A stretch of DNA of 50,706 bases from a virus. This document shows, piece by piece, positions 1,919-44,430 of the stretch (its first letter is position 1; each line of letters begins with the position of its first letter). Both the position numbers and the translations under genes were made by a program. The stretch spans positions 1 to 50,706 of IMG/VR virus record IMGVR_UViG_3300042324_001056. One strand, written 5' to 3'. The notes beneath the pieces are model-generated. The model saw only the letters and a list, made by a program, of their open reading frames with translations. It ran no database searches and had not been told where the DNA came from.

Positions 1919-4663
1919 TTAGTTGATTTCGTTCTTGGGAACACCAACCATAATTAATGATTCGATAAAGTCATTTGCGTATGTTTTAGATTTAAAAGAA
2001 AATACATCTGTAGATTCTTTCTCACCTAATTTTCTATACATGTCATCGAAAATATCATTAGCTTGTACTGCATATCTTAAAGAAACAGTTACCTCGTTCT
2101 TTTCGTTGATTTCTAATGATTCGTATTTAATCATATCTGGACTAAACTTATCAAAGTTTGCTTTTGCCCACTTTACAGCTTCATCGTAAGACTTAAAGTG
2201 CTTAGTGTCCTTTTTAAAGTTTTTGTCTTTGTTTAAGAACTCAATAAAAACTGCTTCATCTTTTTCAGTAAGTAAAGATTCATCAATTCCTAAATCTTTT
2301 TTAGCCATTTCAATAGCTACTTTGTAATATGCTTCAGCTCCTTCGTATGAAGTTGCATTTAACGCATTTGTAAGATCTTTGATTGAATCTTTTCCATCAA
2401 ATTTAAATTTCTGTAGAGAACTAGGTGATACTCTGAAAAAATCTGCTAATCTGCTAATTGCTTCTGATTTTACATCTTTTGCTTCAGTAACTATTGACTC
2501 ATCCATATTTTCTTTAGCATTATCATAGATTGATTTTAACCATGATTCAAATTGACCAGGTTCACCAGCTTTAGATAAGTCATGATGTTCTTTTGTGAAT
2601 GCCTTTACAAATGCTTTAAAGTCCTTTGCTTCTTGGGCCATTATGTCAATATCAGCCATTGCACCTTCGTTGAAAGATTCATTTGCAGCCATGTCTTCAA
2701 TTTGCTTTTTAACATCTTCTGGCATTTTCTTATCGTAATAAGTAATGTTACCGCCGGTTGAAATATGTGCTACTGTTTTGTAATCACCATTTACTTGTTG
2801 TGCTCTGTTCCAAACTGTCGTTCCGTTACCCAATGAACCAAAACCTAAATCATATTTCTTAGCTTCTTCTAGTTCTGTAGATTCTTCTAATTCATGATAA
2901 GATGTGTTAGCTTGATTTAAGAAGTTTTGTGCTTGTGAGATATGATCTTGAATCCAACCTGGAAGATCTTTTTCAGTCTCACCAATCTTTTTCATCAATT
3001 CAGCTGCATTCTTAGCAATATCAAGTAATTGACCATTTGCCATTCCAACTTCATGGTCATTAGCTTCTGTAACTGATTCGTTATATTCAATAGCTCCCAA
3101 TTTCTGATCAAATTTAGCAATAGTATCTTCTACTCTGTCTAGATCGTGTTGAATAGTTTTTAAACCTTTAATCCATTTTTGATCTTTAATGTCCCAACCC
3201 AGCATTGTAATAATCTGATCTTGAAGTTTTGTTAAATCAGTTCCTAGTTCATCAAAGATTAAAGTTTCATCTTCATTAACTTTAGCCTCGTCTAATCCCA
3301 TTTTGCTAATAGTTTCCTTTACAAATCTAACAGCATCTTGAATGGAGTAATCAAATTCTTTTGCTATTTTATTTAAGAAAGTCTCAACCATCTTTTGTTC
3401 TTTTGAAAGTGCTTCATTAATTACTGATTCTTTAACTGGCTTCTTTAAACCTTTGATAAAATCTTCAACAGTAGAAGTAGTCGTACCGTATTTCTCACCT
3501 CTTACAGCCATATTTCTTACAGATCCATCATCATAAAGATTATAAGAACCACCATCGAATTCTTCACCATCAACATCTAAGTCAAATGAATCTTCTTCTA
3601 GAGTTTTAACATTAACTGTGCATTTAACACCGTCATTTTTAGAAATTGCTTTAGCAAGAGTTTCAGCTACTTTTTTAGTTTCTGCTTTTGATAAACCTGC
3701 AGGTGCACCATAATTTGAGTTTGCTTCTAAAAGTTCTGGATAATATTCTTCAACAGTTTCTGCATCCATTTCATAGAATTCACTTTGTAAGTATGCAAGA
3801 ATGTCTTTTTTCTTACCAGTCATTTCATAAGTTCCAGGTTGACCATTAGCACCTTTTACTGTAAGTTTATATTTCTTGAAAGCTGCTTTTGCGGCTTTGT
3901 CTTCTTCTTTGTCTGAATCATCCCATGCCATATCAAGTTCAATAGTTTCAACTTCGTTTGGCTTTTTAGATGTAAGGGCTTCTTTAAGCTCAGTATTAGG
4001 ATTCATCGCTTCATTTGCTTTGTGCATTTGATTAATAAAGTTCTTAGCTTTGGCTTCTGAACCACCAAAGTATTTTAAAATACCTTCTGATGCTGTAGCA
4101 GCAAATTTAGAATAAAGCATATCAGCTGTGTGACGACCGATTGGAGCATTTAAAACTAGTAATGCTACTTCTTCAGTGATCTTGAATGCTTTCATTAAAT
4201 CAGCAACAGCATCTGTAAACATTTTCTGTACTTGAGCTTCTTTGTAAACTGTTTCTAAAGAACCATAAAAGCCATAAGCCATATTAACTTGATCTTCAGT
4301 GTATTTGAATTTTTCTTCTACTGCTTCTTCTTCACTAACATCAGCACCGAATACTTCGTATTCTTTACCGTTAAATTCAAAAGTTTTTGCTTTGGCTTCT
4401 CTAGCCTTTGCTAATGCACCTAAAAATGCATTTCTTTCTAGCAATTCTTTTGCTGCTTTAAGAGCAGAAACCATATCAAGTTTGTTTTCTACCAAACTAA
4501 GAATAGTCTTAATGCTATTTCCTTCTTCTGGTAAATTAGCAACTAGAATATTTGCTTTTGCTGTGTTTTTGGTTTCTACCATTAGAATGGCAGTCTTTGC
4601 TTCTTCTCTTGTATAAACGGTCTCGTTTAATGGTTGGAAGTTATTGAAGTTTACGTAATTCAT
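1919..4663 (-). CDS. Putative head polyprotein, tagged and cut at many prohead-protease sites
   Basis: 914 aa from the ATG at 4663 (MNYVNFNNFQPLNE|T). A longer reading starting MKIYNETKIKLK runs through the GATATATAATG promoter box and is rejected. Besides the N-terminal tag there are recurrent E-S-x-E sites: ESVINE|A (412-417), ESVTE|A (529-533), ESTELEE|A (594-600), ESFNE|G (662-666), ESIVTE|A (722-727), ESLLTE|K (795-800), ESLEINE|K (848-854), and weaker PELLE|A (309-313). Cutting would release pieces of about 54-116 aa from the C-terminal half. The pieces are acidic/lysine-rich and mostly helical, as scaffold-core or internal proteins are. No enzyme domain recognised. Known: T4 gp21 cuts after [L/I]-x-E in core proteins. 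Inference: delivers several small packaged proteins in fixed ratio. Confidence 0.7.
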   Translation of the reverse strand: MNYVNFNNFQPLNETVYTREEAKTAILMVETKNTAKANILVANLPEEGNSIKTILSLVENKLDMVSALKAAKELLERNAFLGALAKAREAKAKTFEFNGKEYEVFGADVSEEEAVEEKFKYTEDQVNMAYGFYGSLETVYKEAQVQKMFTDAVADLMKAFKITEEVALLVLNAPIGRHTADMLYSKFAATASEGILKYFGGSEAKAKNFINQMHKANEAMNPNTELKEALTSKKPNEVETIELDMAWDDSDKEEDKAAKAAFKKYKLTVKGANGQPGTYEMTGKKKDILAYLQSEFYEMDAETVEEYYPELLEANSNYGAPAGLSKAETKKVAETLAKAISKNDGVKCTVNVKTLEEDSFDLDVDGEEFDGGSYNLYDDGSVRNMAVRGEKYGTTTSTVEDFIKGLKKPVKESVINEALSKEQKMVETFLNKIAKEFDYSIQDAVRFVKETISKMGLDEAKVNEDETLIFDELGTDLTKLQDQIITMLGWDIKDQKWIKGLKTIQHDLDRVEDTIAKFDQKLGAIEYNESVTEANDHEVGMANGQLLDIAKNAAELMKKIGETEKDLPGWIQDHISQAQNFLNQANTSYHELEESTELEEAKKYDLGFGSLGNGTTVWNRAQQVNGDYKTVAHISTGGNITYYDKKMPEDVKKQIEDMAANESFNEGAMADIDIMAQEAKDFKAFVKAFTKEHHDLSKAGEPGQFESWLKSIYDNAKENMDESIVTEAKDVKSEAISRLADFFRVSPSSLQKFKFDGKDSIKDLTNALNATSYEGAEAYYKVAIEMAKKDLGIDESLLTEKDEAVFIEFLNKDKNFKKDTKHFKSYDEAVKWAKANFDKFSPDMIKYESLEINEKNEVTVSLRYAVQANDIFDDMYRKLGEKESTDVFSFKSKTYANDFIESLIMVGVPKNEIN

Positions 4664-13387: not shown

Positions 13388-13437
13388 AATATTATCTATA
13401 GTAGTTTATACTCTATAATTTAAAGTTGTTTCATAAA

Positions 13438-13459
13438 AAAAGCCACCGAAGTGGCTTTT
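13438..13459 (-). terminator. UUCG-capped intrinsic terminator of the Ro-adjacent RNA region
   Basis: AAAAGCCAC-TTCG-GTGGCTTTT on the minus strand with a T run, ending the non-coding transcript that begins near 13787. Confidence 0.85.
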
Positions 13460-13722
13460 AATGTTTAACGGGATCGCTGTTCGTGATTTTCTTCTCGGCA
13501 GAATAACCCTGTTTAACGTCTTCGGCTTTGATTTTCGCGAGAGTCTACTATCTTCAACTTCATCCTACTAGTCACCTATTGGGGTGGTTTGACGTGTAAC
13601 CTATTTTCCAGTGTTAGTCTTCACCTTGTCTAGCCGCTTCAAAACTAAGGACGAATCATTAGCTCCACGTTTATCCCAGACTCTGTCATAGTTTGTGTGT
13701 ACTTTTTGCTGTATCGATCCAC
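13460..13722 (-). ncRNA. Candidate Y-type RNA B (long form)
   Basis: The closing helix GGATCG (13715-13720) pairs with CGATCC (13471-13476). One base after the 5' strand is TACAGCAA (13706-13713), as in four other RNAs here. The roughly 235 nt inside hold local hairpins such as CACC-CCAATA-GGTG, GGTT...AACC and TTCT-GCCG-AGAA, but no tRNA-like arm that I can see. It lies directly downstream of the Ro60-like gene. The only open frame here, 60 codons with a TTG start, spans units A and B and shows no protein features. Family unknown. Confidence 0.55.
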
Positions 13723-13786
13723 CTGGTTCCTTGTTTTCCGTTTCTATAAGTATATGGTTGTATAAGTTGCTGTACGGAACCAATTT
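13720..13786 (-). ncRNA. Candidate Y-type RNA A (short form)
   Basis: TGGTTCC (13776-13782) pairs with GGAACCA (13724-13730). One base later comes TACAGCAA (13767-13774). A competing helix TTCCGT/ACGGAA uses part of the same 5' strand, so two folds are possible. The 5' strand begins only a few bases after the promoter box at 13788-13798, so the RNA's 5' end probably is the transcription start. Position next to the Ro60-like gene is typical of Y RNAs. Confidence 0.55.
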
Positions 13787-13787
13787 T

Positions 13788-13798
13788 CTTTATATATC
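13788..13798 (-). promoter_or_regulatory. GATATATAA-type promoter for the Ro-adjacent RNAs
   Basis: Minus strand GATATATAAAG directly after the stop of the Ro60-like gene (13799), placing transcription start at about the 5' strand of RNA A. Confidence 0.55.
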
Positions 13799-15229
13799 TT
13801 AAACGATTGGTGAGTACCTTTCGCTCAAGATTGTTTTATCCATTATTTGTTGTGGAGATTCAATATCTCCTCCAAGTAAACTTTTCATAATTGCTGGTGA
13901 GAATCCGCTTACCAATGCAGTGCCTTGAGTATCAAAGGCTACTGGTACACCACCATTTCTAGATTGAATGTTCCAATAAACAATCTGAGGCATTGTGTAA
14001 CCTGCTGCATCGTACATCTTCTCGATCATTTGTTGTGCAGTTGGATTCCATTTTCCATCTTCGTTTCTCCAACCTCCACCTCCAGTTGCCGCATTAAATT
14101 CCATATCTGATAAGATAAGAATCTTATTTGGCATTTCGTCTTGAGACAAATTATGCTTAGTGGCTTGATCTAAGATCAATTTAAAAGTCGCCTCGAGATT
14201 TGTTGACATTCCCCAATTTGAAGATGACATCTGTGCGTAGCGATCTTTTAGTGAACCACTTAATACTTGTAGTTGTGGAGTGTCTGAGAATGTGATGAAT
14301 GCATCTTTGAAAGGACCTTCATTTCGTTCAGAAATATAAAGACCTAATGAAACAGCAACATCCATACAAGTTACTGATTTGCTACCTCCTGCTGGGCAAG
14401 ACATAGAACCTGATGTATCCACAACTGGTAAAATCATATCGTTTGCTCCTTCTAAATAATTAGGAAGGGCTTTCCATTGTTCGTTAGCAACTGTTGCATT
14501 ACCTTGTTTTAATGACTTGGTAATGTCATAAGGGTAAACTGCACCTGCATTGATTTTAGCTTCACCTTTTACTAATGATTGGATATAAGCTGAATAACTT
14601 TCGTATGCATTTTTACCAAAGGCTTTTTGGTATCTGGCTGAGGCCACTGATGGTAATTTACCAAATTCAATGGTGTCCCATTCTTTAGCACACATTTTAG
14701 TCTCAACAACACTAGTCAATCCAACTAAAGATTTACGATATTGTTTTGGTGACATGCCTGTAAATTTACGTAACTTTTCAGCAATTGGACCTTTACGTGG
14801 CATCCATTTAGCACATAAACCATTTTCAGCTACGATAGCATTTGAAATTAAGGTAAATGCTTCTTTTTCAAGACGTGTTCCTGCAAGAACTAATAAATCA
14901 TCCCATCGGCCGTATTCAGCAATCAAATGCAAGTTTGGTTTTAAAGTCAAATCATGGTCTTCTGCTAAGTAAATGATAATGTCTTTGAAAACTTGACGTT
15001 CTCCAGCACCACCTCTGACATCACGTGCCCAGAATAAAAGTTTCATCGCACGTTTAGGATCTTCATTAAAGGCTTTCGAGAATGTAGCGATCAAACGTTG
15101 TTTGTCTTGGCCTCTCATGGCACCGATGTTAAAGAATAAATCAACACAAGCATTCAATGAACTTGAGTTGGTTGCCATACCATTTTCGGTTAGCATGTCT
15201 TCTTGTCTTAAAGCGTCTACGAATTTCAT
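13799..15229 (-). CDS. Ro60-like RNA-binding protein (TROVE/DUF2828 with vWA domain)
   Basis: 476 aa. The N-terminal helical-repeat part carries RDVRGGAGERQVF (69-81) and EYGRWDDLL (105-113), characteristic of the TROVE-related DUF2828 family. The C-terminal von Willebrand A-like domain starts PVVDTSGSM with the MIDAS DxSxS at 271-275, a MIDAS-type Thr at about 343, and ILSDMEF (372-378). Ro60 proteins are rings that hold the ends of misfolded RNAs and bind Y RNAs; in Deinococcus a Y RNA tethers Ro to polynucleotide phosphorylase. Two candidate Y RNAs follow the gene and three more lie at 41.6-42.2 kb. Inference: phage-made RNP for RNA quality control or RNA/tRNA remodelling. Confidence 0.85.
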   Translation of the reverse strand: MKFVDALRQEDMLTENGMATNSSSLNACVDLFFNIGAMRGQDKQRLIATFSKAFNEDPKRAMKLLFWARDVRGGAGERQVFKDIIIYLAEDHDLTLKPNLHLIAEYGRWDDLLVLAGTRLEKEAFTLISNAIVAENGLCAKWMPRKGPIAEKLRKFTGMSPKQYRKSLVGLTSVVETKMCAKEWDTIEFGKLPSVASARYQKAFGKNAYESYSAYIQSLVKGEAKINAGAVYPYDITKSLKQGNATVANEQWKALPNYLEGANDMILPVVDTSGSMSCPAGGSKSVTCMDVAVSLGLYISERNEGPFKDAFITFSDTPQLQVLSGSLKDRYAQMSSSNWGMSTNLEATFKLILDQATKHNLSQDEMPNKILILSDMEFNAATGGGGWRNEDGKWNPTAQQMIEKMYDAAGYTMPQIVYWNIQSRNGGVPVAFDTQGTALVSGFSPAIMKSLLGGDIESPQQIMDKTILSERYSPIV

Positions 15230-15257: not shown

Positions 15258-16379
15258 TTAGTTTTCGATTGTTTCAAACTTATTTAAAAAAGGTTTACTA
15301 TATTCTGGCTTAACCATTTTCCAGGCCTTTTCGCTCACATCTTTGCCATTTGCAATTCCAAAAATGATACCATGATTAACATCGCTCAAAGCTAAAACTT
15401 GTTCAGCAAATTCTTTTTGAGTCAACATACCATCTCTTAAGATCGAAGAGCAAACTGCTAAATGATAGTGCATTACTTGTTTAAAATCTGCCATGATTTT
15501 AGTTTGAGTTGCATGAACCCAATCATAAAACTCATCTGGTACATCATTAAGCATTTGCTCTGGCAATTTACCAAATTTCATTAAGTTTTCCCAAATATCG
15601 TATGAAGAAACATTAGTTAAGATTCGGTGCAAAGTACAGTAATCTTCAAACTTGATTTTAACCCTTAAGTTAGAAGGAAAGAAACGTAAGACATAACCTT
15701 CTTCGTTGGCTTTGTTCAAAGCTTTTAAAGTTGAATATAATTCTGGACCCAAATCAAAGACTTGAGTAGTTTTAACAATATCAGACTTTTTAACACCTGA
15801 CATTTTAAAATAGGCCTGTGCTGTAGTCCAATGTAATTCATCGTCTCCACCTTCTTTCCAATTCCAAGATCGATTAAGGGCCGCACCTAAAAATGTAATC
15901 TTTTCTTTGCCATAATCAACCACAATTCTATTTTCTGGGTAAATAATCTCACATAAATAGGCAACAGAAGGTTCAAAAGCATCTAAGATGTATTTGGCCT
16001 TTAAGATCTCTAAGCCTCGAATGGCCTGATCTGATGTAAAAGATCCACGAGTTGATAAGATCCACTCATTCTTATAGTTAAATAAAATACCCAAGGATCC
16101 ATCCATTTTTTCTTGAACATAAACATAGTCAGAATTTGACCATGGAATCATAGTCGCTGGCAATTCTTCGTAGTTAAAAAACTTTGGAAATGGCTTAATG
16201 ATAATATTACCAGTTTCATCATCGGTAATAACTCCACGACAAGACAAAGTAACATCGTCCCAATACTTCTCATACTGTGTGGATTGAGAGTAATTGTAGA
16301 TTGACAATGGCAAAGTAGGGTGTGACTGACGAATCAACCAACCTGCTTCTACATACTTATCTAATATTGCTTTGTTCAT
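15258..16379 (-). CDS. RNA ligase, T4 Rnl1 family
   Basis: 373 aa, the usual Rnl1 size. Nucleotidyl motif I is EKMDGSLG with Lys91 as the AMP acceptor; motif III region YLCEIIYPE (Glu144); motif IV EGYVLRF (227-233); motif V VKIKF (240-244). The N-terminal FPKFFNYEE segment is typical of T4 RnlA. Rnl1 joins 5'-phosphate to 3'-OH RNA ends and, in T4, repairs tRNA anticodon-loop breaks together with Pnkp. Here it lies 28 nt upstream of the Ro60-like gene, so the two may be co-expressed. Confidence 0.88.
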   Translation of the reverse strand: MNKAILDKYVEAGWLIRQSHPTLPLSIYNYSQSTQYEKYWDDVTLSCRGVITDDETGNIIIKPFPKFFNYEELPATMIPWSNSDYVYVQEKMDGSLGILFNYKNEWILSTRGSFTSDQAIRGLEILKAKYILDAFEPSVAYLCEIIYPENRIVVDYGKEKITFLGAALNRSWNWKEGGDDELHWTTAQAYFKMSGVKKSDIVKTTQVFDLGPELYSTLKALNKANEEGYVLRFFPSNLRVKIKFEDYCTLHRILTNVSSYDIWENLMKFGKLPEQMLNDVPDEFYDWVHATQTKIMADFKQVMHYHLAVCSSILRDGMLTQKEFAEQVLALSDVNHGIIFGIANGKDVSEKAWKMVKPEYSKPFLNKFETIEN

Positions 16380-25021: not shown

Positions 25022-25384
25022 TTATTTTTCAGAAGTTGCGAACAATTCTGCTTTTTTAGCCTTAATGTGCTTACAGTCACCTCGATGAAAACTATTTGAT
25101 GGACATGTGCAGCTCCAAGAGCCATTATTATCTGAAACAGTGTAAGTTACACCAGCTTTAGATCCATTTACTGTCCATTCTTGCTTAGGTTTGGACTCTT
25201 TAGGAGCTGATGGTGCTACTTGTTTTTTAGACGTATTATCTGCTTCGAAGAACCTGATCTGATCCCTAGTAGTCCCATCGGGCACTGGGTGCCAATCTGG
25301 ACATACATAAGTACCTGATAAAGTTTTGACTATGGCAAAAACATCACCATAAAACCGACTACGTGGGAATGTATAGATCTCCAT
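25022..25384 (-). CDS. SWIM zinc-finger protein
   Basis: 120 aa. Near the C-terminus WSCTCPSNSFHRGDCKHIKA gives the SWIM pattern CxC...CxH, a zinc finger for nucleic-acid or protein binding; a Lys/Pro-rich linker precedes it. The N-terminal 45 residues (IYTFPRSRFYGDVFAIV) are unassigned. The coding 3' end contains the UUCG element, so this motif is conserved even inside codons. Confidence 0.7.
   Translation of the reverse strand: MEIYTFPRSRFYGDVFAIVKTLSGTYVCPDWHPVPDGTTRDQIRFFEADNTSKKQVAPSAPKESKPKQEWTVNGSKAGVTYTVSDNNGSWSCTCPSNSFHRGDCKHIKAKKAELFATSEK
25030..25050 (-). promoter_or_regulatory. UUCG 3'-end element inside coding sequence
   Basis: CAGAA and TTCTG flank TTG-TTCG-CAA with one unpaired C: the best-paired hairpin of the nine copies. 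It lies in the last codons (ELFATSEK) of the SWIM gene. Confidence 0.65.
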
Positions 25385-25387
25385 GGC

Positions 25388-25606
25388 TTATCGTTCTAAG
25401 ATTACAAATTCACCAAATTCACGATCGAATACTTGTAAGAGATGTTCATAATCTCCTGACATCATTTCTCCAATGATCTTATCTTTGTTAAGTTTAAGTT
25501 GGCTTGCGAATTTAGCTGCCATTCCCATAAGGACAAATGCATTACCTTCTGGTCCTGTAAGATCGATAATGATCGGTCCTGATTTTTCTTCTTTATTTCT
25601 TATCAT
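25388..25606 (-). CDS. Hypothetical protein
   Basis: 72 aa from the ATG at 25606 (MIRNKEEKSG). A longer reading is only translation through the upstream terminator and promoter. Contains GPIIIDLTGPEGNAFVLMGMA and helices after it. I have an impression of similar small phage proteins but no function. Three bases upstream of the SWIM gene. Confidence 0.6.
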   Translation of the reverse strand: MIRNKEEKSGPIIIDLTGPEGNAFVLMGMAAKFASQLKLNKDKIIGEMMSGDYEHLLQVFDREFGEFVILER

Positions 25607-25612
25607 CTTTCT

Positions 25613-26053: not shown

Positions 26054-26467
26054 TTAGTCTTCTGTTTGTGTTATCTCGTAATGCAATAATGAATGCCATA
26101 AGTTCTGTATCTGATGAACAAATACTATGTCAAATGAGATCGGATATTTCTTACCATCATCATTTGAGTCAGGACTATCAGTGAACTCTTGATAAAAAGC
26201 CCAGTTTTTAGCCCAGTCTCGGTATCTAAAGCAAAACTTGTAATCGTATATGCCTTTGCACCAATACTCACCGTCTTTATGGAATCCCCACTGTTCAAAC
26301 CACTCATCAGTTAAGACAAGACCTTTTACTCTTTCGTAGTCTTCCATTGTGTCTTGAGTTTCTTCTAAGTCCACAACTACGCATGATAAATGACCGATCT
26401 CAATAATCTTGGCAATCCTATTGCCCAGATCTATAATGTTTCCAATTCTTAAGTCTGTTGATTTCAT
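26054..26467 (-). CDS. Bacteroidetes phage-type hypothetical protein
   Basis: 137 aa starting MKSTDLRIGNIIDLGNRI, a pattern I recognise from uncharacterised proteins of Bacteroidetes phages and prophages (RIGN followed by a strand and a C-terminal HQIQNLWHSL helix). Supports the host assignment. Overlaps the next gene's stop by four bases. Confidence 0.65.
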   Translation of the reverse strand: MKSTDLRIGNIIDLGNRIAKIIEIGHLSCVVVDLEETQDTMEDYERVKGLVLTDEWFEQWGFHKDGEYWCKGIYDYKFCFRYRDWAKNWAFYQEFTDSPDSNDDGKKYPISFDIVFVHQIQNLWHSLLHYEITQTED

Positions 26468-26727
26468 ATTACTTGTTTGTTAAATATATGTCGGCAATCA
26501 GTATATGCACATCTGTAATCGCCATCGTTTGATATAGAATATTCATTTACTCCTTCACATTTTGGGCATATAACATCTTCTTCGATATGTTGAAGTTTTA
26601 TGTCAAATGAAGCATAGATCTTTCTAGCAGCAATTTCATGCCAATCAGGAATACTATGTTCATGTTTCTTTTGCTCATCTTTAATGCGCAGCGCAATTGC
26701 TTTTATGATTATTTCTTTGTCGTCCAT
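26464..26727 (-). CDS. Zinc-ribbon protein
   Basis: 87 aa from the ATG at 26727 (MDDKEIIIKA); an upstream ATG at 26745 adds six residues and overlaps the kinase gene. The C-terminus has CPKC and CAYTDCRH, a probable zinc ribbon. Function unknown; a nucleic-acid contact is likely by fold only. Confidence 0.6.
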   Translation of the reverse strand: MDDKEIIIKAIALRIKDEQKKHEHSIPDWHEIAARKIYASFDIKLQHIEEDVICPKCEGVNEYSISNDGDYRCAYTDCRHIFNKQVI

Positions 26728-30114: not shown

Positions 30115-30720
30115 TTATTTCCAAAGTATATTGGAATAACTAGAGTACATGTATTTATCAATCATGGCGTTCTCTAATTTCTTAAATTTAGCAGATTGAT
30201 CTTTTTTACCAAGATATGGATCACCTTCGGTTTGTAATTTTATTTGATGTGTTAATTCATGCAAAATAGCATATTCAACATCGTGCATTTTACTAACATC
30301 AAAAGAAATGTAAAGTGCTTTGTTTGTTTTTGGATTATATGTAGTTGATGCACCGCCGAATTTAACTGATTCAAATCTCAATGGAATTTCATCTACACTT
30401 TCAGCTTTACAGATTGCAGAATAATATTGTTTGATTTTATCAGATGTTATTGCAGCTTCGTTTACCGACTCTTTTAATTTTCTTTTTTGTTGAATTATTT
30501 GTTGGATCTGTGAAAATATAGATTGTATATCCTTCTCTAATTCTTTCTCATCAGCACTCATCGGCGATTCAATATCTATATTAGAATAAAGTTTTTTCTT
30601 TTTAGCAATTAATACATCTACTTTTTTAATCAAGTCATGTCTTACTTTATCCAAATCTTTTATAATTTCAGATGGAGTTGCTTCATTTAAAAAATCTTCA
30701 AATAATTTAATATGTTTCAT
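30115..30720 (-). CDS. Head-tagged HExxH metallopeptidase
   Basis: 201 aa starting MKHIKLFEDFLNE|A. A Lys/Gln-rich coiled coil follows to about residue 88, then a second site KESVNE|A, then a compact domain with ILHELTHQIK (HExxH, SprT/minigluzincin-like) and KALYISFD strands. Cutting at both sites would free a metallopeptidase of about 110 aa inside the head. T4 has no such protein; role unknown, perhaps acting on host proteins after injection (inference). GATATATAA promoter just upstream. Confidence 0.7.
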   Translation of the reverse strand: MKHIKLFEDFLNEATPSEIIKDLDKVRHDLIKKVDVLIAKKKKLYSNIDIESPMSADEKELEKDIQSIFSQIQQIIQQKRKLKESVNEAAITSDKIKQYYSAICKAESVDEIPLRFESVKFGGASTTYNPKTNKALYISFDVSKMHDVEYAILHELTHQIKLQTEGDPYLGKKDQSAKFKKLENAMIDKYMYSSYSNILWK

Positions 30721-30737
30721 GAATTTAACTTATTTTA

Positions 30738-30748
30738 AGTTATATATC
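30738..30748 (-). promoter_or_regulatory. GATATATAA-type promoter-like box
   Basis: Minus strand GATATATAACT overlapping the stop of the RNA ligase gene (30747), 18 nt before the tagged peptidase ATG. Confidence 0.5.
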
Positions 30749-31880
30749 ACTTTTCGTTCATTAAAAACTTATTTGAAATAGCTTTAAAACTAATCTTACG
30801 ATCTAAACTTCTAATAACCACACCTTCTCTATCAAAATTAGGATTTAAAACTGATTTTGCATCAGCATAAGCTAATAACTCATCAATGGTCTCTGGCAAC
30901 TTCATTGTCAAATTTGTCAACATTGGTACAGTTTCTAATTTTAATCCATGTTGCATAGTTGCCAAGAACATTGGTAAGCCATAGTACTCTTGTGTATCAA
31001 TGTCGAATACGTTAAAGAATCTAACAGTTTGTCCTTTGATTTTGTAAGGATTGCCTTGGATACCCTCACCAATCAACTCACCTTGAATAGAGATATTTCG
31101 ACCGTAAGCTTCTAGCTTTTCTTTAAGTCCTAATTCTTGAGCTACTTTCCAGAATGAATTTTGTTGACGTGGTCTTTCGATACCATCATCACACATCACC
31201 ATTCCTGCAACAAACTCTTCAGGTTCTGCTAGTTCTAAGTTTCTTGAACATACACCAAAGACACCATCTTTATAGTAATAAGTAGCTGAAGATCCATCTA
31301 ACTTTTCAGTCACATAGAAGTCTAGATCTTGTTCTTTCCACTGTGCATATTCTTTAACCAAGTTTTGAACTCGTTCTTCGTCGGTTTTGCGAATAAATGA
31401 TGGAAAGTAACCTTTGACTTTACCAGACAATTCAGCTGGAATTGGTGGTTCATATTTCTCTACACCTAACAATTCAGTTACATCTACACCCTCTTCGATT
31501 ACTAAAGCGTTATCATAAGGTCCTAATTGTAATTGATCTCCGTGTGGTTGTTGAGAGATTCCAATAATGTAATCACCATTTAGGATTCCAATAGGTACCA
31601 CTAAACCTTGAGAAACTTGGCCTCTTAGTCTAATAGTCTTTAAACGAAATCCTTCTTGGTCACCCATCTTTTTAAATGAGCTTTTACGTAAGAATTCAAA
31701 CTCTTCTCTGATCGGTAAGAATGAATCAATTTCAAAGTAAACACAAAGTTCTCCTACTTTAAATTCATTTTTCTTAACAACAACATCCCAGTTGTTGATT
31801 CTTGCTACTTCGATAGCATCAGCACCCTCAATTGGTCTAATGCTAGCGATTCTCTGTACGGATGCTAGTTTTCTTTCCAT
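30747..31880 (-). CDS. RNA ligase of the Rnl5 (Deinococcus DraRnl-like) type
   Basis: 377 aa. An N-terminal OB-like module (RKLASVQRIASIRPIEGADAI..., residues 1-140) precedes the adenylyltransferase domain: motif I TEKLDGSSATYY with Lys193, SIQGELIGEG (III), REGVVIRS (IV) and ISFKAISNKFL (V). An N-terminal OB module is the mark of DraRnl, which seals 3'-OH/5'-phosphate nicks in duplexes with the 3' strand RNA. It is a different family from the Rnl1 at 15258, so this phage carries two RNA ligases. Confidence 0.85.
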   Translation of the reverse strand: MERKLASVQRIASIRPIEGADAIEVARINNWDVVVKKNEFKVGELCVYFEIDSFLPIREEFEFLRKSSFKKMGDQEGFRLKTIRLRGQVSQGLVVPIGILNGDYIIGISQQPHGDQLQLGPYDNALVIEEGVDVTELLGVEKYEPPIPAELSGKVKGYFPSFIRKTDEERVQNLVKEYAQWKEQDLDFYVTEKLDGSSATYYYKDGVFGVCSRNLELAEPEEFVAGMVMCDDGIERPRQQNSFWKVAQELGLKEKLEAYGRNISIQGELIGEGIQGNPYKIKGQTVRFFNVFDIDTQEYYGLPMFLATMQHGLKLETVPMLTNLTMKLPETIDELLAYADAKSVLNPNFDREGVVIRSLDRKISFKAISNKFLMNEK

Positions 31881-31894
31881 TATGTTTTATTTGA

Positions 31895-32431
31895 TTATAC
31901 TTTTGGGATTGCTAAAATAGCTTGTCTTAGTGTTGCTATTATATCGATCAAAGCCACTACAGCATCTGGCACTGTTAATTCAATTTTGATTGCTGCTCCT
32001 AATAAGCCAACAAATTGATTAACTAAGTTATTTAAGATAGCCAACATTTGATTAACTTTTGCGCTGGCTTCTTGTAATGTACTTAAAGGATTTGGTAATG
32101 AAGGTCCGCCCGCATTTGGTAAAACCGAAGGAATAGCAGCACTCGCAATAGTAGCTTTAATAGTATCTTGTACTTGTGTTATACCAGCTTTTATATTAGC
32201 AAAAGTTGATTTGACTATATAAATTTGCATTTTAACTTCTTGTTCTACCACTTTGTATGTGTCATCAATAAACTGCTGTCTTTCGGCTGCTGTATCAAAT
32301 TGTTCATACTCAGGGTATTTCTTTTTGATATAATTTTCAATAATAGTTTTTACTGAAGGCATACCTGGAAACTTCTCACCATCTGCGGTTAATTTATCAA
32401 GTGCTGCCATTAATTCTGCTGTAGTTGCCAT
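31895..32431 (-). CDS. Hydrophobic helical protein, probably structural
   Basis: 178 aa. Long amphipathic helices with Ala/Ile/Leu-rich stretches (LAILNNLVNQFVGLLGAAIK, AVVALIDIIATLRQAILAI) and a Pro-rich hinge (SVLPNAGGPSLPNPL). No tag and no recognised family. Could be a virion baseplate/tail or membrane-active protein. A CATATAATTAAAT stretch at 32448-32460 may be its promoter. Confidence 0.55.
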   Translation of the reverse strand: MATTAELMAALDKLTADGEKFPGMPSVKTIIENYIKKKYPEYEQFDTAAERQQFIDDTYKVVEQEVKMQIYIVKSTFANIKAGITQVQDTIKATIASAAIPSVLPNAGGPSLPNPLSTLQEASAKVNQMLAILNNLVNQFVGLLGAAIKIELTVPDAVVALIDIIATLRQAILAIPKV

Positions 32432-32469
32432 ATAATACTTATTTTTATTTAATTATATGACAACTTAGC

Positions 32470-33213
32470 TTATTGTTTCTTTTCAAAAGTTGGTTTCAAC
32501 CACATGCCTCGATCAAAGACCAAGTCTAAAAAGCCTGGGATTGATTGAGCATCCACTAAATGTAGTAATTTGATAGTTGCAACAGTATCATGTTTTAGCA
32601 TCTTGAAAATCTCTTCGCGAATTCTTTCAGCACTAACTGTCGTTCTTAGTTTTTCCAAGATTTCAGGTTGCATCATTGCGATCCAAATATCATCATGAAT
32701 GCTAAATCCTTTGGTGATTTTAAACCTCAAAGCCCTCATAATTCTCAATGGATCATCCATCATAGTCATTTTTGCAGGCAATGGTGTTCTAAGCAAACCT
32801 CGTTTTAGGTCCTCTTGGCCACCAAAAAGATCAATAATGTTTCCATCAATGTCTTCAGCTAAGGCATTGACTGTAAAATCTCGACGAAGTAAATCATCGG
32901 CCAGAGTTCCAAGTTCTAGAATTGGCTGACGAGTTCCTTCTAAGTAACCAACTTCTTTACGAGCCATTACAAAGTCAGCCACTAGGCCGCTAAATTGGTG
33001 ATCTTTAGGAAACTTAGCCCTAATAGTAAAACAGTCTGGAGTGCTCAAGAACACTTCAAAACCTTCTTGTTTAAGATGATCTTCCATTGTTGCGAAACCT
33101 TCTTGGACTGATCCGGATAAGTCATCCAATACAAATGTAAAGTCTATGTCTTTGGATTCTAGTCCAAGAAACTTGTCCCTTACACATCCTCCTACTTTAA
33201 ATATCTGTGGCAT
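32470..33213 (-). CDS. cca: CCA-adding/poly(A)-polymerase-type nucleotidyltransferase
   Basis: 247 aa from the ATG at 33213. Head domain signatures: VGGCVRDKFLG (GG..RD), KDIDFTF (Asp22/Asp24 metal ligands), RRDFTVNALA and DPLRIMRALRFK, the order found in class II CCA enzymes. It lacks the long C-terminal body/tail of bacterial enzymes (usually near 400 aa), like some phage members. At least three tRNAs here (Thr, Leu, Asn) lack an encoded CCA, giving it a job. A longer reading runs through the terminator-promoter and is rejected. Confidence 0.8.
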   Translation of the reverse strand: MPQIFKVGGCVRDKFLGLESKDIDFTFVLDDLSGSVQEGFATMEDHLKQEGFEVFLSTPDCFTIRAKFPKDHQFSGLVADFVMARKEVGYLEGTRQPILELGTLADDLLRRDFTVNALAEDIDGNIIDLFGGQEDLKRGLLRTPLPAKMTMMDDPLRIMRALRFKITKGFSIHDDIWIAMMQPEILEKLRTTVSAERIREEIFKMLKHDTVATIKLLHLVDAQSIPGFLDLVFDRGMWLKPTFEKKQ

Positions 33214-33220
33214 CTTCTTT

Positions 33221-33260
33221 CTTTTAATTATACTGTAAATATACACAAAACATTTGACAT
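33221..33260 (-). promoter_or_regulatory. Class A promoter
   Basis: TGTCAAATGTTTTGTGTATA then TTTACAGTATAATTAAAAG on the minus strand, seven bases before the CCA-enzyme ATG. Confidence 0.7.
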
Positions 33261-33266
33261 AAAAAA

Positions 33267-33294
33267 ATCCGGATGAAAATAAATTCACCCGGAT
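33267..33294 (-). terminator. Terminator hairpin of the CCGG/CCGG type
   Basis: Same stem and loop as the copy at 8838, 24 kb away, followed by the T run and promoter. Confidence 0.8.
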
Positions 33295-33299
33295 CTTAA

Positions 33300-33314
33300 A
33301 AAGTTACGAACAAT
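33300..33314 (-). promoter_or_regulatory. UUCG 3'-end element
   Basis: TTGTTCGTAACTTTTT begins at the stop codon of 33314-34132. Confidence 0.6.
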
Positions 33315-34132
33315 TAGATTGAAGCAGTTATTACTTCTAATTTGCCTCTAAGCTTGATAACATCTTTTTCCAAAGATTTCAATCTGGTGGTAGGCCATTG
33401 AACGTTTTGTGTTTTCCAGAATTCAATACCACCAGCTTTATTTTTTGCTATACTTGCATTGTATTCTTCTTCAGAGTTATTATAGTTTTTAGCAGCATCT
33501 CTTTTGATCAATTCGTCCCATGTTGGATTGTCTTTATAAGCCCAATATTGAGTATCGATTAGCTCTTGTTCAATTTGAGCATCAGTCATTGGACTGTTTT
33601 TAGCTAGTTTTTCTTTAACTCGTGTAATGTCTCTTTCCAAATTCTCAATCTCGAAATTTAGCTTTTCAGCTTTGGTCATTTTCTTGATCTTTTCAGTGTA
33701 TTCTTTACTGATTTCTGATCTGCCAGTTCTTGGCAATTTTGTGCTTGTTATGTAACGATAATGAGCTCGTTGTATATTATAACCACCGGCAATAATAGCT
33801 TCTGTCTTCAAACTATATGTTTCAGTTCCTCTTTGAATTTGAGCAGAGATTTCAATGTTACCTTTACGAGATGTAGACGGTGTGATTGAAAGCAATGTAT
33901 CTGTAGGTTCTGTGTAGTATTCAATTGATTTAACTAGGTCAGCTATAACTTGAAGATGAGTCATTTCTCTATCAAAATCAGAAAAAGGACGTTCAAACTT
34001 CTTAACGAACCAAGCTTCAACTTCATTAACCATAGTTAAGACAGTTGGTTCTAATGCATCTAAGATGGCATAAATTAAACCAGTACTTTTTGACTCATTT
34101 AAAAATTGCTGATAGGATTTTATTGCTTTCAT
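33314..34132 (-). CDS. Putative head protein with packaging tag and coiled coil
   Basis: 272 aa starting MKAIKSYQQFLNE|S, a tag even closer to T4 MKTYQEFIAE. The body has helical segments, a Thr/Ser-rich strand region (LLSITPSTSRKGNIEISAQI) and a coiled coil (FEIENLERDITRVKEKLAK) to the end. No enzyme motif. Unlike other tagged genes it is behind a class A-like promoter, so its timing may differ. Confidence 0.65.
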   Translation of the reverse strand: MKAIKSYQQFLNESKSTGLIYAILDALEPTVLTMVNEVEAWFVKKFERPFSDFDREMTHLQVIADLVKSIEYYTEPTDTLLSITPSTSRKGNIEISAQIQRGTETYSLKTEAIIAGGYNIQRAHYRYITSTKLPRTGRSEISKEYTEKIKKMTKAEKLNFEIENLERDITRVKEKLAKNSPMTDAQIEQELIDTQYWAYKDNPTWDELIKRDAAKNYNNSEEEYNASIAKNKAGGIEFWKTQNVQWPTTRLKSLEKDVIKLRGKLEVITASI

Positions 34133-41440: not shown

Positions 41441-41516
41441 TGGAGCGAAAGACGGGATTCGAACCCGCGACCTCCAGTTTGGTAAACTGGAGCTCTACCA
41501 GCTGAGCTACTTTCGC
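41441..41516 (-). tRNA. tRNA-Gly (anticodon ACC), CCA encoded
   Basis: Acceptor GCGAAAG/CTTTCGC, D arm GCTC-GAGC with GG, anticodon stem CCAGT/ACTGG with loop TTACCAA, T arm GCGGG-TTCGAAT-CCCGT, discriminator T and encoded CCA. U73 fits glycine. Anticodon ACC (A34) for GGU is unusual, since bacteria normally use GCC. Confidence 0.85.
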
Positions 41517-41604
41517 AATTTGGGTTGGATCAGAGGCCTTCTGCCAACCGAGACCTCGTCGTTGAACTTCCGAAAAAATCAGAGCGTACCGAGACACTAT
41601 AAAA
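41517..41604 (-). other. Structured spacer between Y-type RNA and tRNA-Gly
   Basis: No gene. GGTTGG-CAGA pairs with TCTG-AT-CCAACC near 41524-41550, and GTCTCGGT occurs twice (minus strand) in an imperfect direct repeat. Could be a processing region or a further small RNA. Confidence 0.4.
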
Positions 41605-41734
41605 AATTCAGGATGGCTTTTTGTACGTGCTCTACCAGCTGAGCTAACTGCCTCGAAAGACAGTATGGGATTCGAACCCATGACCACGAGGTTAATAGCC
41701 TAGTTTTTACTTTTTGCAGTAACCATCCTTTAAG
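41605..41734 (-). ncRNA. tRNA-mimicking Y-type RNA 1 (YrlA-like, permuted tRNA fold)
   Basis: Ends close by GGATGG (41723-41728) with CCATCC (41611-41616), then T and TACTGCAA (41714-41721). Inside is a tRNA in permuted order: T arm ATGGG-TTCGAAT-CCCAT (41665-41681), acceptor strand ACTGTCT, loop TTCG (41654-41657), acceptor strand AGGCAGT, TA, then D arm GCTC-AGCTGGTA-GAGC (41629-41644). The seven-base-pair acceptor is fully paired and sealed by a UUCG tetraloop, so no 3' CCA end can exist. A local hairpin CTAGG-CTATTAA-CCTCG sits at the anticodon-arm place. This is the topology reported for bacterial Y RNAs (YrlA), which bind Ro60. Confidence 0.8.
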
Positions 41735-41904: not shown

Positions 41905-41929
41905 AATAATTAAATTGTTAAATTGTTAG

Positions 41930-42003
41930 AGCCTCTTGACGGATTCGAACCGCCGACCCCCTCATTACAAGTGAGGTGCTCTGGCCAACTGAGCTAAAGA
42001 GGC
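41930..42003 (-). tRNA. tRNA-Thr (anticodon TGT)
   Basis: Acceptor GCCTCTT/AAGAGGC, D arm GCTC-GAGC with GG, anticodon arm CCTCA-CTTGTAA-TGAGG, T arm with TTCGAAT. CCA is not encoded, so it depends on a CCA enzyme. Confidence 0.9.
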
Positions 42004-42009
42004 AAAATA

Positions 42010-42071
42010 ACGGGATACGATTTGGTTTCAGTTGTTGTAGAATTGAAAGTTATTTGCTGTATGTATCCCAA
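42010..42071 (-). ncRNA. Candidate Y-type RNA C (short form)
   Basis: GGGATAC (42063-42069) pairs with GTATCCC (42012-42018); one base after the 5' strand is TACAGCAA (42054-42061). An inner TTTCA/TGAAA stem is possible. No tRNA-like arms. It separates Y-type RNA 2 from tRNA-Thr by a few bases each side. Confidence 0.5.
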
Positions 42072-42074
42072 TAA

Positions 42075-42205
42075 GGTCAGGTTTCTGTTTTTGCTTACCA
42101 GCGCGTTTACCAATTTCGCCACAATTATCTTTCGATAAGAGGTAGGACTCGAACCTACAATGTACCGGTTCCAGATGCTGTTTTATTGCTGTAAGAAACC
42201 TTTAA
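42075..42205 (-). ncRNA. tRNA-mimicking Y-type RNA 2 (YrlA-like, permuted class II tRNA fold)
   Basis: Ends close by AGGTTTCT (42194-42201) with AGAAACCT (42079-42086), followed by TACAGCAA (42186-42193). Inside, in permuted order: ACCGG (42065+100..., i.e. 42165-42169), T arm GTAGG-TTCGAGT-CCTAC (42142-42158), acceptor strand CTCTTATC, loop GAAA (42130-42133), GATAATTG, TG, a leucine-type D arm GCG-AAATTGGTAAAC-GCG, then CTGGT (42097-42101) pairing with ACCGG as the anticodon-type stem. The acceptor has two mismatches but is capped by a GNRA tetraloop. Shares flanking TTAAAGG...TTAC-GCAA and CAAAAA...CCTGA with RNA 1, so the two are paralogues. Confidence 0.8.
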
Positions 42206-43153: not shown

Positions 43154-43336
43154 TCATTTGATAGTTCTGATCGTATAAACATGACCTGAATCGCTATTTT
43201 CTTGTAGCATTTGTCTGGTATCTTCAGCTTTTTCTAAATCGTCAAATTCTAATATTTCAGAGTGACCATCTAGAATTAGGACTGGAAGTGTGCCAGTTTC
43301 AGTTGTGATGTTTTTTACAATAATGTAGGTTTCCAT
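43154..43336 (-). CDS. 60-aa hypothetical protein
   Basis: Small ferredoxin-like alternation: TYIIVKNITT strand, PVLILDGHSEILEF, helix ADTRQMLQENS, strand HVYTIRTI. Not recognised. One-base overlap with the aminopeptidase gene. Confidence 0.55.
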   Translation of the reverse strand: METYIIVKNITTETGTLPVLILDGHSEILEFDDLEKAEDTRQMLQENSDSGHVYTIRTIK

Positions 43337-44430
43337 TAGATTCTAGGATTTTTTATAGATTCGATTTCGTAAACCGATAAGTTTAATAGTGTATTGACAA
43401 ATAGTATAATAGCGTTTTCAACATCATCTTTGTGTGCCATTTCAACAGTCGTGTGCATGTATTTCAATGGTGTTGCTAAAATTGCAGTTGGCGTATTTTC
43501 TAAAAAGAAAGAAACTGTATCATTTCCATAAGATCCAACTGTTAATTGAATTGGTATCTCAAGTTCATGCGCTGTGTCGCGATAAAGTTTGATCAGTTTG
43601 CGGTGATTTTGTGCTGTAAACTCAACACAAGGTCCTTTTCCACCTTCGATGTCACCATCTTTGGCTTTATTCATCATTGGGTGATTTGTGTTGTGACAAA
43701 CATCATGTACTAATGCAATATCAGCTTTGATAGTTTGAGCAATCAAACGAGCTCCAAATAAGCCAACCTCTTCCTGGACTGAGTTAACTACATATAAGTC
43801 AAATGGTAAACGATGATTCATTTTTGAAATGCGTAAAAGAGCTTCAGCGATGATATAACCACCAATCTTATTATCCAATGAACGACCAACATAATAGTCA
43901 CCTAACTCACTAAACTGATCGTCAAAAGTAACCATACAGCCAACTTCAACTCCAAGTTCTTTTACTTTGTCAGCTGAATCAACTCCAAAATCCAACCATA
44001 ATTCATGCTGATCTGGTCCCATTTCGGTGTATTTTTCTCTAACATGAACTGCTGGAGAACCAAAGAATGCTTTAACTTTTTGACCTTTATGAGTATGTAC
44101 GATCACAGATTTTGAAGCTGCGATCATATTATCAGATCCACCAGCTCTTTTAACTCGAACGTAACCGTCTTTTTCGATTTGAGTAATGATCCATGCAATT
44201 TCATCACAATGTGCTTCTAAAACTACTCGATATGGCTCAGCGTATCTGTGCGATAAATCTTGGTCAGCTGTGCTGCCTTTTAAGATGCCATAAGCAGTAC
44301 CATAAGCATCGACTTTTACTTGATCGGCAAATGGTCTAATATAATCTGCCCAAATTTTCTGTCCTTCGGTCTCTTGACCAACTGGTGAAAATGCGTTTAG
44401 ATAATTGTAAAGAAATTCTTTTGAGTCCAT
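43336..44430 (-). CDS. M42-family metallo-aminopeptidase
   Basis: 364 aa, full length for the family. Metal and catalytic residues all present: LEAHCDEIA (His74, Asp76), SLDNKIGG (Asp186, bridging), QEEVG (Glu220/Glu221), VHDVCHN (Asp243) and YMHTTVE (His326). Members form dodecameric TET particles that trim peptides. Very unusual in a phage; may recycle peptides for amino acids or trim phage/host proteins during infection. No signal or tag, so cytoplasmic. Confidence 0.88.
   Translation of the reverse strand: MDSKEFLYNYLNAFSPVGQETEGQKIWADYIRPFADQVKVDAYGTAYGILKGSTADQDLSHRYAEPYRVVLEAHCDEIAWIITQIEKDGYVRVKRAGGSDNMIAASKSVIVHTHKGQKVKAFFGSPAVHVREKYTEMGPDQHELWLDFGVDSADKVKELGVEVGCMVTFDDQFSELGDYYVGRSLDNKIGGYIIAEALLRISKMNHRLPFDLYVVNSVQEEVGLFGARLIAQTIKADIALVHDVCHNTNHPMMNKAKDGDIEGGKGPCVEFTAQNHRKLIKLYRDTAHELEIPIQLTVGSYGNDTVSFFLENTPTAILATPLKYMHTTVEMAHKDDVENAIILFVNTLLNLSVYEIESIKNPRI

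What the first reader, a model, noticed from the sequence alone, without database searches (positions are those of the whole stretch)
13460..15229. Phage Ro60-like protein with its own candidate Y RNAs, spread over two loci
A DUF2828/TROVE-type Ro60 homologue is followed directly by two structured RNAs, and three further RNAs with the same end structure lie in the tRNA cluster 28 kb away. Known: likely Y RNAs are encoded near Ro60 in many bacteria and some phages, at least one per species mimics tRNA, and Ro plus Y RNA can direct polynucleotide phosphorylase. Five candidates in one phage, interleaved with real tRNAs and two RNA ligases, would be an unusually elaborate Ro RNP. It may redirect host RNA decay or shelter phage RNAs.
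Basis: partly seen in the sequence, partly recalled or inferred. Interest (0 to 1): 0.92.

Follow-up and report, generated by a model that had tools for sequence, protein, structure and literature searches.

The report
Phage Ro protein with Y RNAs
A large bacterial virus carries a relative of the human Ro60 protein with at least five small RNA partners, two beside the gene and three among its tRNA genes, and comparison with other phages shows that such RNA sets are widespread and share one sequence-and-structure signature.

Summary
ORF 13799-15229(-) is a DUF2828/DUF7788 protein whose predicted structure matches Ro60 structures best (Z 13.8-18). Two RNAs follow it; three lie in the tRNA cluster 26 kb away. 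All five share a closing helix and, 1-3 nt inside it, C(A/U)GCAA. The helix covaries (short class: 6 of 7 pairs change on both sides). Of 80 related viral loci, 70 have CAGCAA plus helix within about 1 kb of Ro (55 permuted hexamers: mean 3.2, maximum 21). Four of eight relatives examined carry six such RNAs. Of 18 isolates, 14 have candidates, 9-11 in Erwinia phage Kaldavass, about 200 kb from Ro. Five Ro-less phages have no model hit at E<0.1. RNA3 and RNA5 contain permuted tRNA T and D arms. RNA2 belongs to a 183-260 nt class without Rfam match. Bacteroidota cellular Ro60 loci have tRNA-like Y RNAs but no match to the phage short-RNA model.

Ro and Y RNAs in phages are already known: a new variant of a known kind. 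The two-locus arrangement is common. New, as far as I could check: the shared signature, arrays far from Ro, the long class. Binding and function are inferred.

The parts
13799..15229 (-). Ro60-fold protein, DUF2828/DUF7788 branch (helical ring region plus vWA domain)
13790..13798 (-). GATATATAA, promoter-like motif just upstream of RNA1 (inferred; 6 sites on the - strand of the window, none on +)
13723..13783 (-). RNA1, short class, closing helix UUGGUUCC/GGAACCAG plus CAGCAA
13470..13721 (-). RNA2, long class (252 nt), closing helix GGAUCG/CGAUCC plus CAGCAA, covarying inner helices
   Evidence: no Rfam match above chance
13435..13459 (-). intrinsic-terminator-like hairpin after RNA2 (read from sequence)
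42079..42201 (-). RNA3, tRNA-like class: closing helix GGUUUCU/AGAAACC, CAGCAA, T-arm before D-arm
42011..42070 (-). RNA4, short class, closing helix GGGAUAC/GUAUCCC, CAGCAA
41610..41729 (-). RNA5, tRNA-like class, CUGCAA variant; Rfam YrlA 41.6 bits; cleanly absent from a close relative (segment 41605-41736)
41929..42003 (-). tRNA-Thr(tgt), between RNA4 and RNA5
41441..41516 (-). tRNA-Gly(acc), downstream of RNA5
15258..16379 (-). T4 Rnl1-type RNA ligase beside Ro (context; neighbourhood not conserved)
30747..31880 (-). second RNA ligase (PF09414, PHA02142 OB-fold); context
32470..33288 (-). poly(A) polymerase / CCA-adding head domain; context

Best explanation
The locus encodes a phage Ro ribonucleoprotein: a Ro60-fold ring protein and a set of Y RNAs (five in this fragment, six in four of eight relatives examined). 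Each RNA is a module clamped by a covarying helix with C(A/U)GCAA beside it, which I infer is the Ro-binding site. What lies between the ends differs: nearly nothing (RNA1, RNA4), a permuted tRNA elbow (RNA3, RNA5), or a roughly 200-nt fold (RNA2). Most likely mechanism: the ring holds damaged or misfolded small RNAs, tRNAs above all, while exchangeable Y RNAs gate the ring or tether a partner (host PNPase, tRNA-processing enzymes, or the phage ligases), so that phage and host tRNAs are repaired or cleared during infection. Shown here: predicted fold, RNA signature, covariation, distribution. Inferred: binding, tethering, tRNA quality control. My confidence is about 0.85 for identity as a Ro RNP and about 0.35 for tRNA surveillance or repair as its job; the figure below is for the whole statement.
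For: Ro fold: rows 1-9 of the structural alignment are all Ro60/TROVE/Rsr entries, Z 13.8-18 over 372-399 residues; four Foldseek matches at E<=0.001, all Ro. D271, S273, S275, T343, D375 (DxSxS...T...D of a vWA metal site, assignment recalled) invariant in 30 sequences. Closing helix of the short class: 99.2% of cells paired, 6 of 7 pairs with changes on both sides, 23 such cells against 4.4 in shuffles. Three helices of the long class: 98.2%, 43 cells against 12.7. RNA4 and sixth-type RNAs: 100%, 13 cells against 4.1. Near Ro: 70 of 80 viral loci and 8 of 13 isolates, permuted hexamers mean 3.2 and 0.6. Clusters of hits unmatched by any of 55 permuted hexamers in 5 of 6 Ro+ records. R1 hits at E<=0.05 in 29 of 37 Ro+ records, none at E<0.1 in 5 Ro-less phages. 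tRNA-like arms: 6 of 9 predicted pairs with two-sided changes. RNA5 is cleanly missing from a close relative. Context: two RNA ligases, a CCA-type domain and tRNA genes.
Against: No expression or binding data for this phage. Over whole genomes, stem plus CAGCAA is barely above permuted hexamers (Kaldavass 40 against 28.9 expected, XaC1 27 against 22.5), so single remote hits mean little and only clusters and orthologues count. KVP40 shows no significant cluster. Four of 18 isolates gave no clear candidate. Sequences of A2, A4 and A6 were picked with the help of the helix, which inflates percent paired; the number of further pair types does not exceed shuffles in A2 (396 of 500 reach it) or A6 (500 of 500), nor clearly in A4 (38 of 500), and the number of pairs with two-sided change in A6 is reached by 114 of 500. 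A ligase like the window's is not a steady neighbour of Ro. PNPase and the ring's substrates are untested.
Confidence: 0.6

Rival explanations
1. The RNAs are Y RNAs, but the particle serves general RNA turnover: Y RNA tethers the Ro ring to host PNPase (a RYPER-like machine) to degrade structured host RNA or rRNA rather than to mind tRNAs.
For: This is the role described for Deinococcus (passages of PMC4726728, and PMC7790460). The authors of the Listeria CKA15 study offer it for their phage.
Against: The repeated placing of the RNAs inside tRNA clusters and the tRNA elbows point to tRNA; no PNPase contact could be tested.
Confidence: 0.3
2. Decoy model: the tRNA-like Y RNAs compete for host anticodon nucleases or tRNA-modifying enzymes and the Ro protein merely stabilises them.
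For: RNA3 and RNA5 keep T and D arms in permuted order. A competitive-inhibitor role of YrlA has been proposed (PMC7790460 passage).
Against: RNA1, RNA2, RNA4 and the sixth type have no evident tRNA-like part, and no anticodon arm is evident in RNA3 or RNA5.
Confidence: 0.2
3. RNA1 and RNA2 are only processed 3'UTR structure of the Ro message, and the tRNA-cluster elements are tRNA-derived remnants or processing signals.
For: RNA1 and RNA2 lie directly after the Ro stop codon and before a terminator-like hairpin. A scan for single elements over whole genomes is weak.
Against: In relatives a further gene lies between Ro and both RNAs and they persist (L004, L010, L015, L016). Helices covary. 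RNA3, RNA4 and RNA5 counterparts are kept in the tRNA regions of relatives.
Confidence: 0.08
4. The RNAs hijack the host's own Ro60 instead of serving the phage protein.
For: 15 of 296 sampled Bacteroidota genomes have TROVE; that the host is a Bacteroidota is itself a weak inference.
Against: R1 has no convincing match in 15 Bacteroidota TROVE loci (best E 0.27), and six of eight Y-RNA regions printed show GUGCCGU...UUGCC ends instead. The phage brings its own Ro.
Confidence: 0.05

Closest known systems
Deinococcus radiodurans Rsr - Y RNA - PNPase (RYPER)
   Same: Ro-fold ring protein (2nvo, Z 14.0) with a Y RNA partner; per reviews the RNA gates the ring and tethers PNPase (passages)
   Different: Sequence too distant for the Pfam TROVE model; many RNAs here, some far from Ro. 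PNPase not shown here.
Salmonella rsr-yrlBA-rtcBA operon and Rfam YrlA RF02553
   Same: Permuted T/D-arm module; RNA5 scores 41.6 bits; RNA ligase genes in the same genome
   Different: Below the gathering score of 69. The 5' part of the YrlA consensus reads AUGCUU (alignment), not CAGCAA. The ligases found in the window are of Rnl type, not RtcB.
Mycobacteriophage Ro-like proteins and Y RNAs (Chen et al. 2014: abstract recalled, paper not held)
   Same: DUF2828-type Ro homologue; Faith1 has three and OhShagHennessy three CAGCAA RNAs just downstream, one of each tRNA-like
   Different: All near Ro; no long form found near Ro in the isolates tested
Listeria phage CKA15 noncoding RNAs and CKA15_055 (PMC12282133)
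   Same: Ro-like protein; very abundant noncoding RNAs within 2 kb upstream, which the authors suggest may be Y RNAs; R1 finds two RNAs just upstream of the gene
   Different: The one region whose coordinates I saw (26,236-26,727) is not where my candidates lie (about 25,216-25,610), so identity with their other two regions is open
Thermus phage phiLo Ro60 (9l5y) and the TROVE-domain protein 9kop (source not shown in my calls)
   Same: Best structural matches to the predicted model (9kop Z 18.0, 9l5y Z 16.4)
   Different: 16% identity; their Y RNAs were not examined here

Membership tests
Ro60 fold family | helical ring plus vWA domain in Ro60 order | tested here: met
   AlphaFold2 model, mean pLDDT 76.3; Ro60/TROVE/Rsr entries fill ranks 1-9, Z 13.8-18
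Ro60 fold family | vWA metal-site residues DxSxS...T...D | tested here: met
   D271, S273, S275, T343, D375 invariant in 30 sequences; assignment of these residues to the site is recalled knowledge
Pfam TROVE (PF05731) | match to the TROVE sequence model | tested here: not met
   No TROVE among hits at E<=0.01; so filed as Ro60-fold, DUF2828 branch, not as Pfam TROVE
Ro60 fold family | binds Y RNA and misfolded RNA | not testable with these tools
   needs pull-down or gel shift
bacterial Y RNA | encoded beside Ro | tested here: inconclusive
   met by RNA1 and RNA2; RNA3-5 lie about 26 kb away, as do counterparts in relatives
bacterial Y RNA | 5' and 3' ends pair into a conserved helix | tested here: met
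bacterial Y RNA | at least one member carries a tRNA-like domain | tested here: met
   RNA3, RNA5: T-arm and D-arm in permuted order
bacterial Y RNA | bound by Ro in the cell | not testable with these tools
   no binding data
Rfam YrlA RF02553 | score at or above the gathering threshold (69 bits) | tested here: not met
   RNA5 41.6 bits; RNA3 no YrlA match at E<=1; 0 of 43 records over the cut-off, and E<=0.01 hits also occur in 9 of 14 control genomes
RYPER (Ro-Y RNA-PNPase) | Y RNA tethers PNPase | not testable with these tools
   needs protein-RNA experiments

The most novel reading that the evidence does not exclude
Phages run their own branch of Ro biology, with a binding code (helix plus CAGCAA) distinct from that of the cellular Ro60 compared here, and with arrays of one to about eleven interchangeable Y RNAs, many stored in their tRNA operons. 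The different inserts (bare, tRNA elbow, 200-nt fold) act as exchangeable adaptors that send cleaved or faulty tRNAs to different fates, and the particle may even travel in the virion, since the Listeria CKA15 homologue was found there.
Probability: 0.25. Interest if true: 0.82.

Novelty: new variant of a known kind. Interest (0 to 1): 0.62.

Why it matters
Relatives of this Ro protein occur in 682 of 50,697 phage records searched, including phages of laboratory hosts, yet I found no demonstrated job for a phage Ro particle. A common signature lets Y RNAs be found far from Ro, gives a candidate binding site that can be mutated, and shows how many partners one Ro may have. It also suggests an identity for some unannotated gaps in phage tRNA clusters, and points to a long structured RNA class not in Rfam.

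Tried and rejected
Rejected: chance motif; plain YrlA membership for all five RNAs (only RNA5 matches, below threshold); T4 and T5 stable RNAs of unknown function as Y RNAs of this type (the printed T4 rnaC and rnaD and the seven T5 RNAs contain neither CAGCAA nor CUGCAA). A conserved Ro-ligase operon: a tblastn of the window's own ligase (E<=1e-6) hit 6 of 93 loci; it cannot see ligases of other types, some of which are annotated near Ro in LP-124, Kaldavass and XaC1.

Led nowhere or weak: a whole-genome scan for stem plus CAGCAA, barely above permuted hexamers; the cluster test was run on 6 of the 7 Ro+ records tiled (Baudelaire left out). The counts used a looser stem rule (CAGCAA 66 of 128 near Ro, all 59 other permutations together 489 of 2083) and were replaced. 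A structure search by sequence profile gave only weak hits, two of them TROVE proteins at E 0.51. Literature on phiLo gave nothing on its Ro60. MAFFT alignment A3 misplaced the 3' helix and was not used for counts; in A5 row L098 is doubtful but was kept in the counts; in A6 one row (L422 2143-2201) has its 3' helix misplaced. The ROOL idea for the abundant CKA15 RNA failed there. In Bacteroidota TROVE loci the simple stem scan gave scattered hits without a consistent place, one of them strong and on the opposite strand beyond L154's gene.

Isolate tally (18): candidates by motif scan and/or R1 in KVP40, AYO145A, F336, LP-124, Baudelaire, Faith1, Ci1 (R1 only, E 0.0018), Kaldavass, TJE1, FADO, XaC1, 6ec, Mordin, OhShagHennessy; none clear in AsFcp_4 (one CUGCAA candidate with a 9-bp helix far from Ro, L102), Ah1, PG-2021_15, Lak-B2 (for the last three only 6-8 kb either side of Ro was read). 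R1 alone at E<=0.05 hit 9 of the first 13 and 2 of the later 5.

Relatives examined for the full set (8): six RNAs in G002, G010, G011, G020; five in G001 (no RNA5); fewer found in G018 and G019; in G014 RNA1 and RNA2 only, none in the 10-kb tRNA stretch read. Apart from G011, only stretches of these records were read.

Full report
What was checked. The window is a 50,706-base virus record, 34% G+C. The ORF at 13799-15229(-) has 476 aa and matches Pfam DUF7788 and DUF2828, not TROVE. An AlphaFold2 model from 30 related viral sequences (pLDDT 76.3, pTM 0.72) was compared with the PDB. Foldseek's four matches at E<=0.001 are all Ro proteins. VIA-align ranks Ro60-type entries 1-9 (TROVE-domain protein 9kop 18.0, Thermus phage phiLo Ro60 9l5y 16.4, Xenopus Ro 16.2-16.0, D. 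radiodurans Rsr 14.0), above the vWA-only entries at 11.6 and less. So it is a Ro60-fold protein; the residues D271, S273, S275, T343 and D375 are invariant in 30 sequences.

The RNAs. Reading the minus strand gives five elements with the same ends: a 6-9 bp closing helix, 1-3 nt, then C(A/U)GCAA. RNA1 (61 nt) and RNA2 (252 nt) follow the Ro stop codon and end before a terminator-like hairpin. RNA3 (123 nt), RNA4 (60 nt) and RNA5 (120 nt) lie in the tRNA cluster, with tRNA-Thr between RNA4 and RNA5 and tRNA-Gly after RNA5. RNA5 matches Rfam YrlA (41.6 bits, E 1.4e-7, gathering 69). RNA3 and RNA5 carry T-arm, a short acceptor-like hairpin and D-arm in that order, that is, a circularly permuted tRNA elbow. 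By folding energy alone only RNA5 stands out (z -3.45; RNA4 -2.05, RNA1 -1.33, RNA3 -0.90).

Support from relatives. 276 stretches in viral contigs encode relatives and 80 were kept. CAGCAA with a closing helix (score 14 or more) lies within -700 to +1100 nt of Ro in 70 of 80; 55 permuted hexamers give a mean of 3.2 and a maximum of 21. Among the first 13 isolates it is 8 of 13 against 0.6 (maximum 4), and two or more hits in 6 of 13 against a maximum of 1. These loci are related, so the counts are not independent events. In alignment A4 (19 short RNAs from viral contigs, mycobacteriophages and a staphylococcal phage) CAGCAA is invariant and 6 of 7 helix pairs change on both sides. Model R1 from A4 found RNA4, which was not in its training set, at E 6.9e-6, and hits in 29 of 37 Ro-bearing records at E<=0.05. 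Five phages without this Ro (T4, T5, phiKZ, SPO1, RaK2) have no hit at E<0.1.

Two loci recur in this group. Of eight relatives examined, G002, G010, G011 and G020 each have RNA1 and RNA2 beside Ro and RNA3, RNA4, RNA5 and a sixth short RNA (GGAUGC...GCAUCC) in the tRNA region; G001 has five, and fewer were found in G014, G018 and G019. RNA4 and sixth-type RNAs covary (A6: 100% of cells paired, 3 of 7 pairs with two-sided changes, though 114 of 500 shuffles reach that number of pairs). In G001, 93-97% identical to the window in the flanking segments, RNA5 is cleanly missing (segment 41605-41736) while RNA3 and RNA4 are kept, and the sixth RNA lies at 13468-13522 beside a tRNA-Ile, beyond what would be the window's edge. 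So at least one Y RNA has been gained or lost as a unit.

Wider picture. 682 of 50,697 phage records have a relative of the protein. Of 18 sampled isolates 14 have candidates (listed in Tried and rejected). Xanthomonas phage XaC1 has five at 328.6-329.8 kb, Ro being at 128 kb; Erwinia phage Kaldavass has nine under the strict rule (eleven under the looser one) at 72-78 kb, Ro being at 279 kb. Those clusters are not equalled by any of 55 permuted hexamers; this holds for 5 of 6 Ro+ records tested and fails for KVP40; among 5 Ro-less records none exceeds its permuted hexamers (T5 has 2 in 6 kb, equalled by one of 55). Over whole genomes the simple scan is barely enriched, so isolated hits must not be counted.

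The long class. A long form (170-275 nt) lies near Ro in 50 of 80 viral loci (maximum for a permuted hexamer 15) and in none of the first 13 isolates. In A2 (26 sequences) three helices keep 98.2% of cells paired with 43 two-sided changes against 12.7 in shuffles; the number of pair types does not exceed shuffles. No Rfam family reached its threshold for the window's copy or that of L050.

Cellular comparison. 15 of 296 Bacteroidota genomes have TROVE. In 7-kb stretches around them R1 found nothing better than E 0.27. In the 9 of 15 given to Rfam, 8 show a YrlA match at E<=0.01; such weak matches can also be tRNA-like chance. Of the eight printed, six read GUGCCGU...UUGCC near their ends and two (L157, L160) a variant of it, none CAGCAA. 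So the tRNA elbow is shared, but the ends differ between phage and these cellular Y RNAs. Only this phylum was compared.

Literature. Jumbo-phage survey PMC7824862 (two passages) notes a TROVE protein in a small subset. [quoted passage not shown] Chen et al. 2014, which by my recollection of its abstract reports likely Y RNAs near Ro60 in more than 250 bacterial and phage species, is not held; PMC12282133 (outline, passages and section 8) cites it for mycobacteriophages. That paper reports for Listeria phage CKA15 three very abundant noncoding regions within 2 kb upstream of a Ro-like gene, suggests Y RNAs as one explanation, and finds the protein in purified particles (20 peptides, 57% coverage). 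R1 finds two RNAs just upstream of that gene at L302 5060-5115 and 5149-5204; the paper's one region with coordinates that I saw (26,236-26,727) is elsewhere, so the link is consistent, not proven. In the listings and the passages read I saw no description of the CAGCAA signature or of Y-RNA arrays far from Ro, but most subscription papers are not in that library.

How it probably works. By analogy with Ro60 (PMC4726728 and PMC7790460 passages), the helix plus CAGCAA would dock on the ring and the insert would gate or tether. The RNAs' home in tRNA clusters, the tRNA elbows, and the ligases and CCA-type domain in the same genome favour tRNA surveillance or repair. That is inference: the window's type of ligase is not a steady neighbour of Ro, and no partner was tested.

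Verdict. Five RNAs are ordinary for this phage group. New variant of a known kind; interest 0.62.

Noticed in passing
Listeria phage LP-124, L086 4465-5016; CKA15 L302 about 3885-4376: Rfam ROOL matches LP-124 at 87.4 bits (gathering 99.1) between a tRNA and a small gene. The equivalent place in CKA15 is the phage's most abundant noncoding RNA (paper), but no ROOL match was found there at E<=0.01.
   Followed up: partly
Listeria phage CKA15_055 (PMC12282133, Table 1): The Ro-like protein was detected in purified virions (20 peptides, 57% coverage), so phage Ro may be packaged.
   Followed up: no
window - strand 1214, 4694, 13798, 30748, 39353, 49600: GATATATAA occurs six times on the coding strand and never on the other, mostly near gene boundaries; possibly a phage promoter.
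   Followed up: partly
L152-L160 (Bacteroidota TROVE loci): Six of eight printed cellular Y-RNA regions share GUGCCGU near the 5' end and UUGCC near the 3' end, a signature different from the phage one.
   Followed up: partly
window 41520-41606: G+C-rich stretch between RNA5 and tRNA-Gly, partly kept in a close relative, with no significant fold (z -0.37) and no assigned role.
   Followed up: no
window 43336-44430: Phage-encoded M42-type aminopeptidase (Pfam E 1.1e-64).
   Followed up: no
T5 record 30284-33949 (L128), T4 record 70908-71171 (L127): Old stable RNAs of unknown function in tRNA clusters; they lack the CAGCAA element and the phages lack this Ro.
   Followed up: yes
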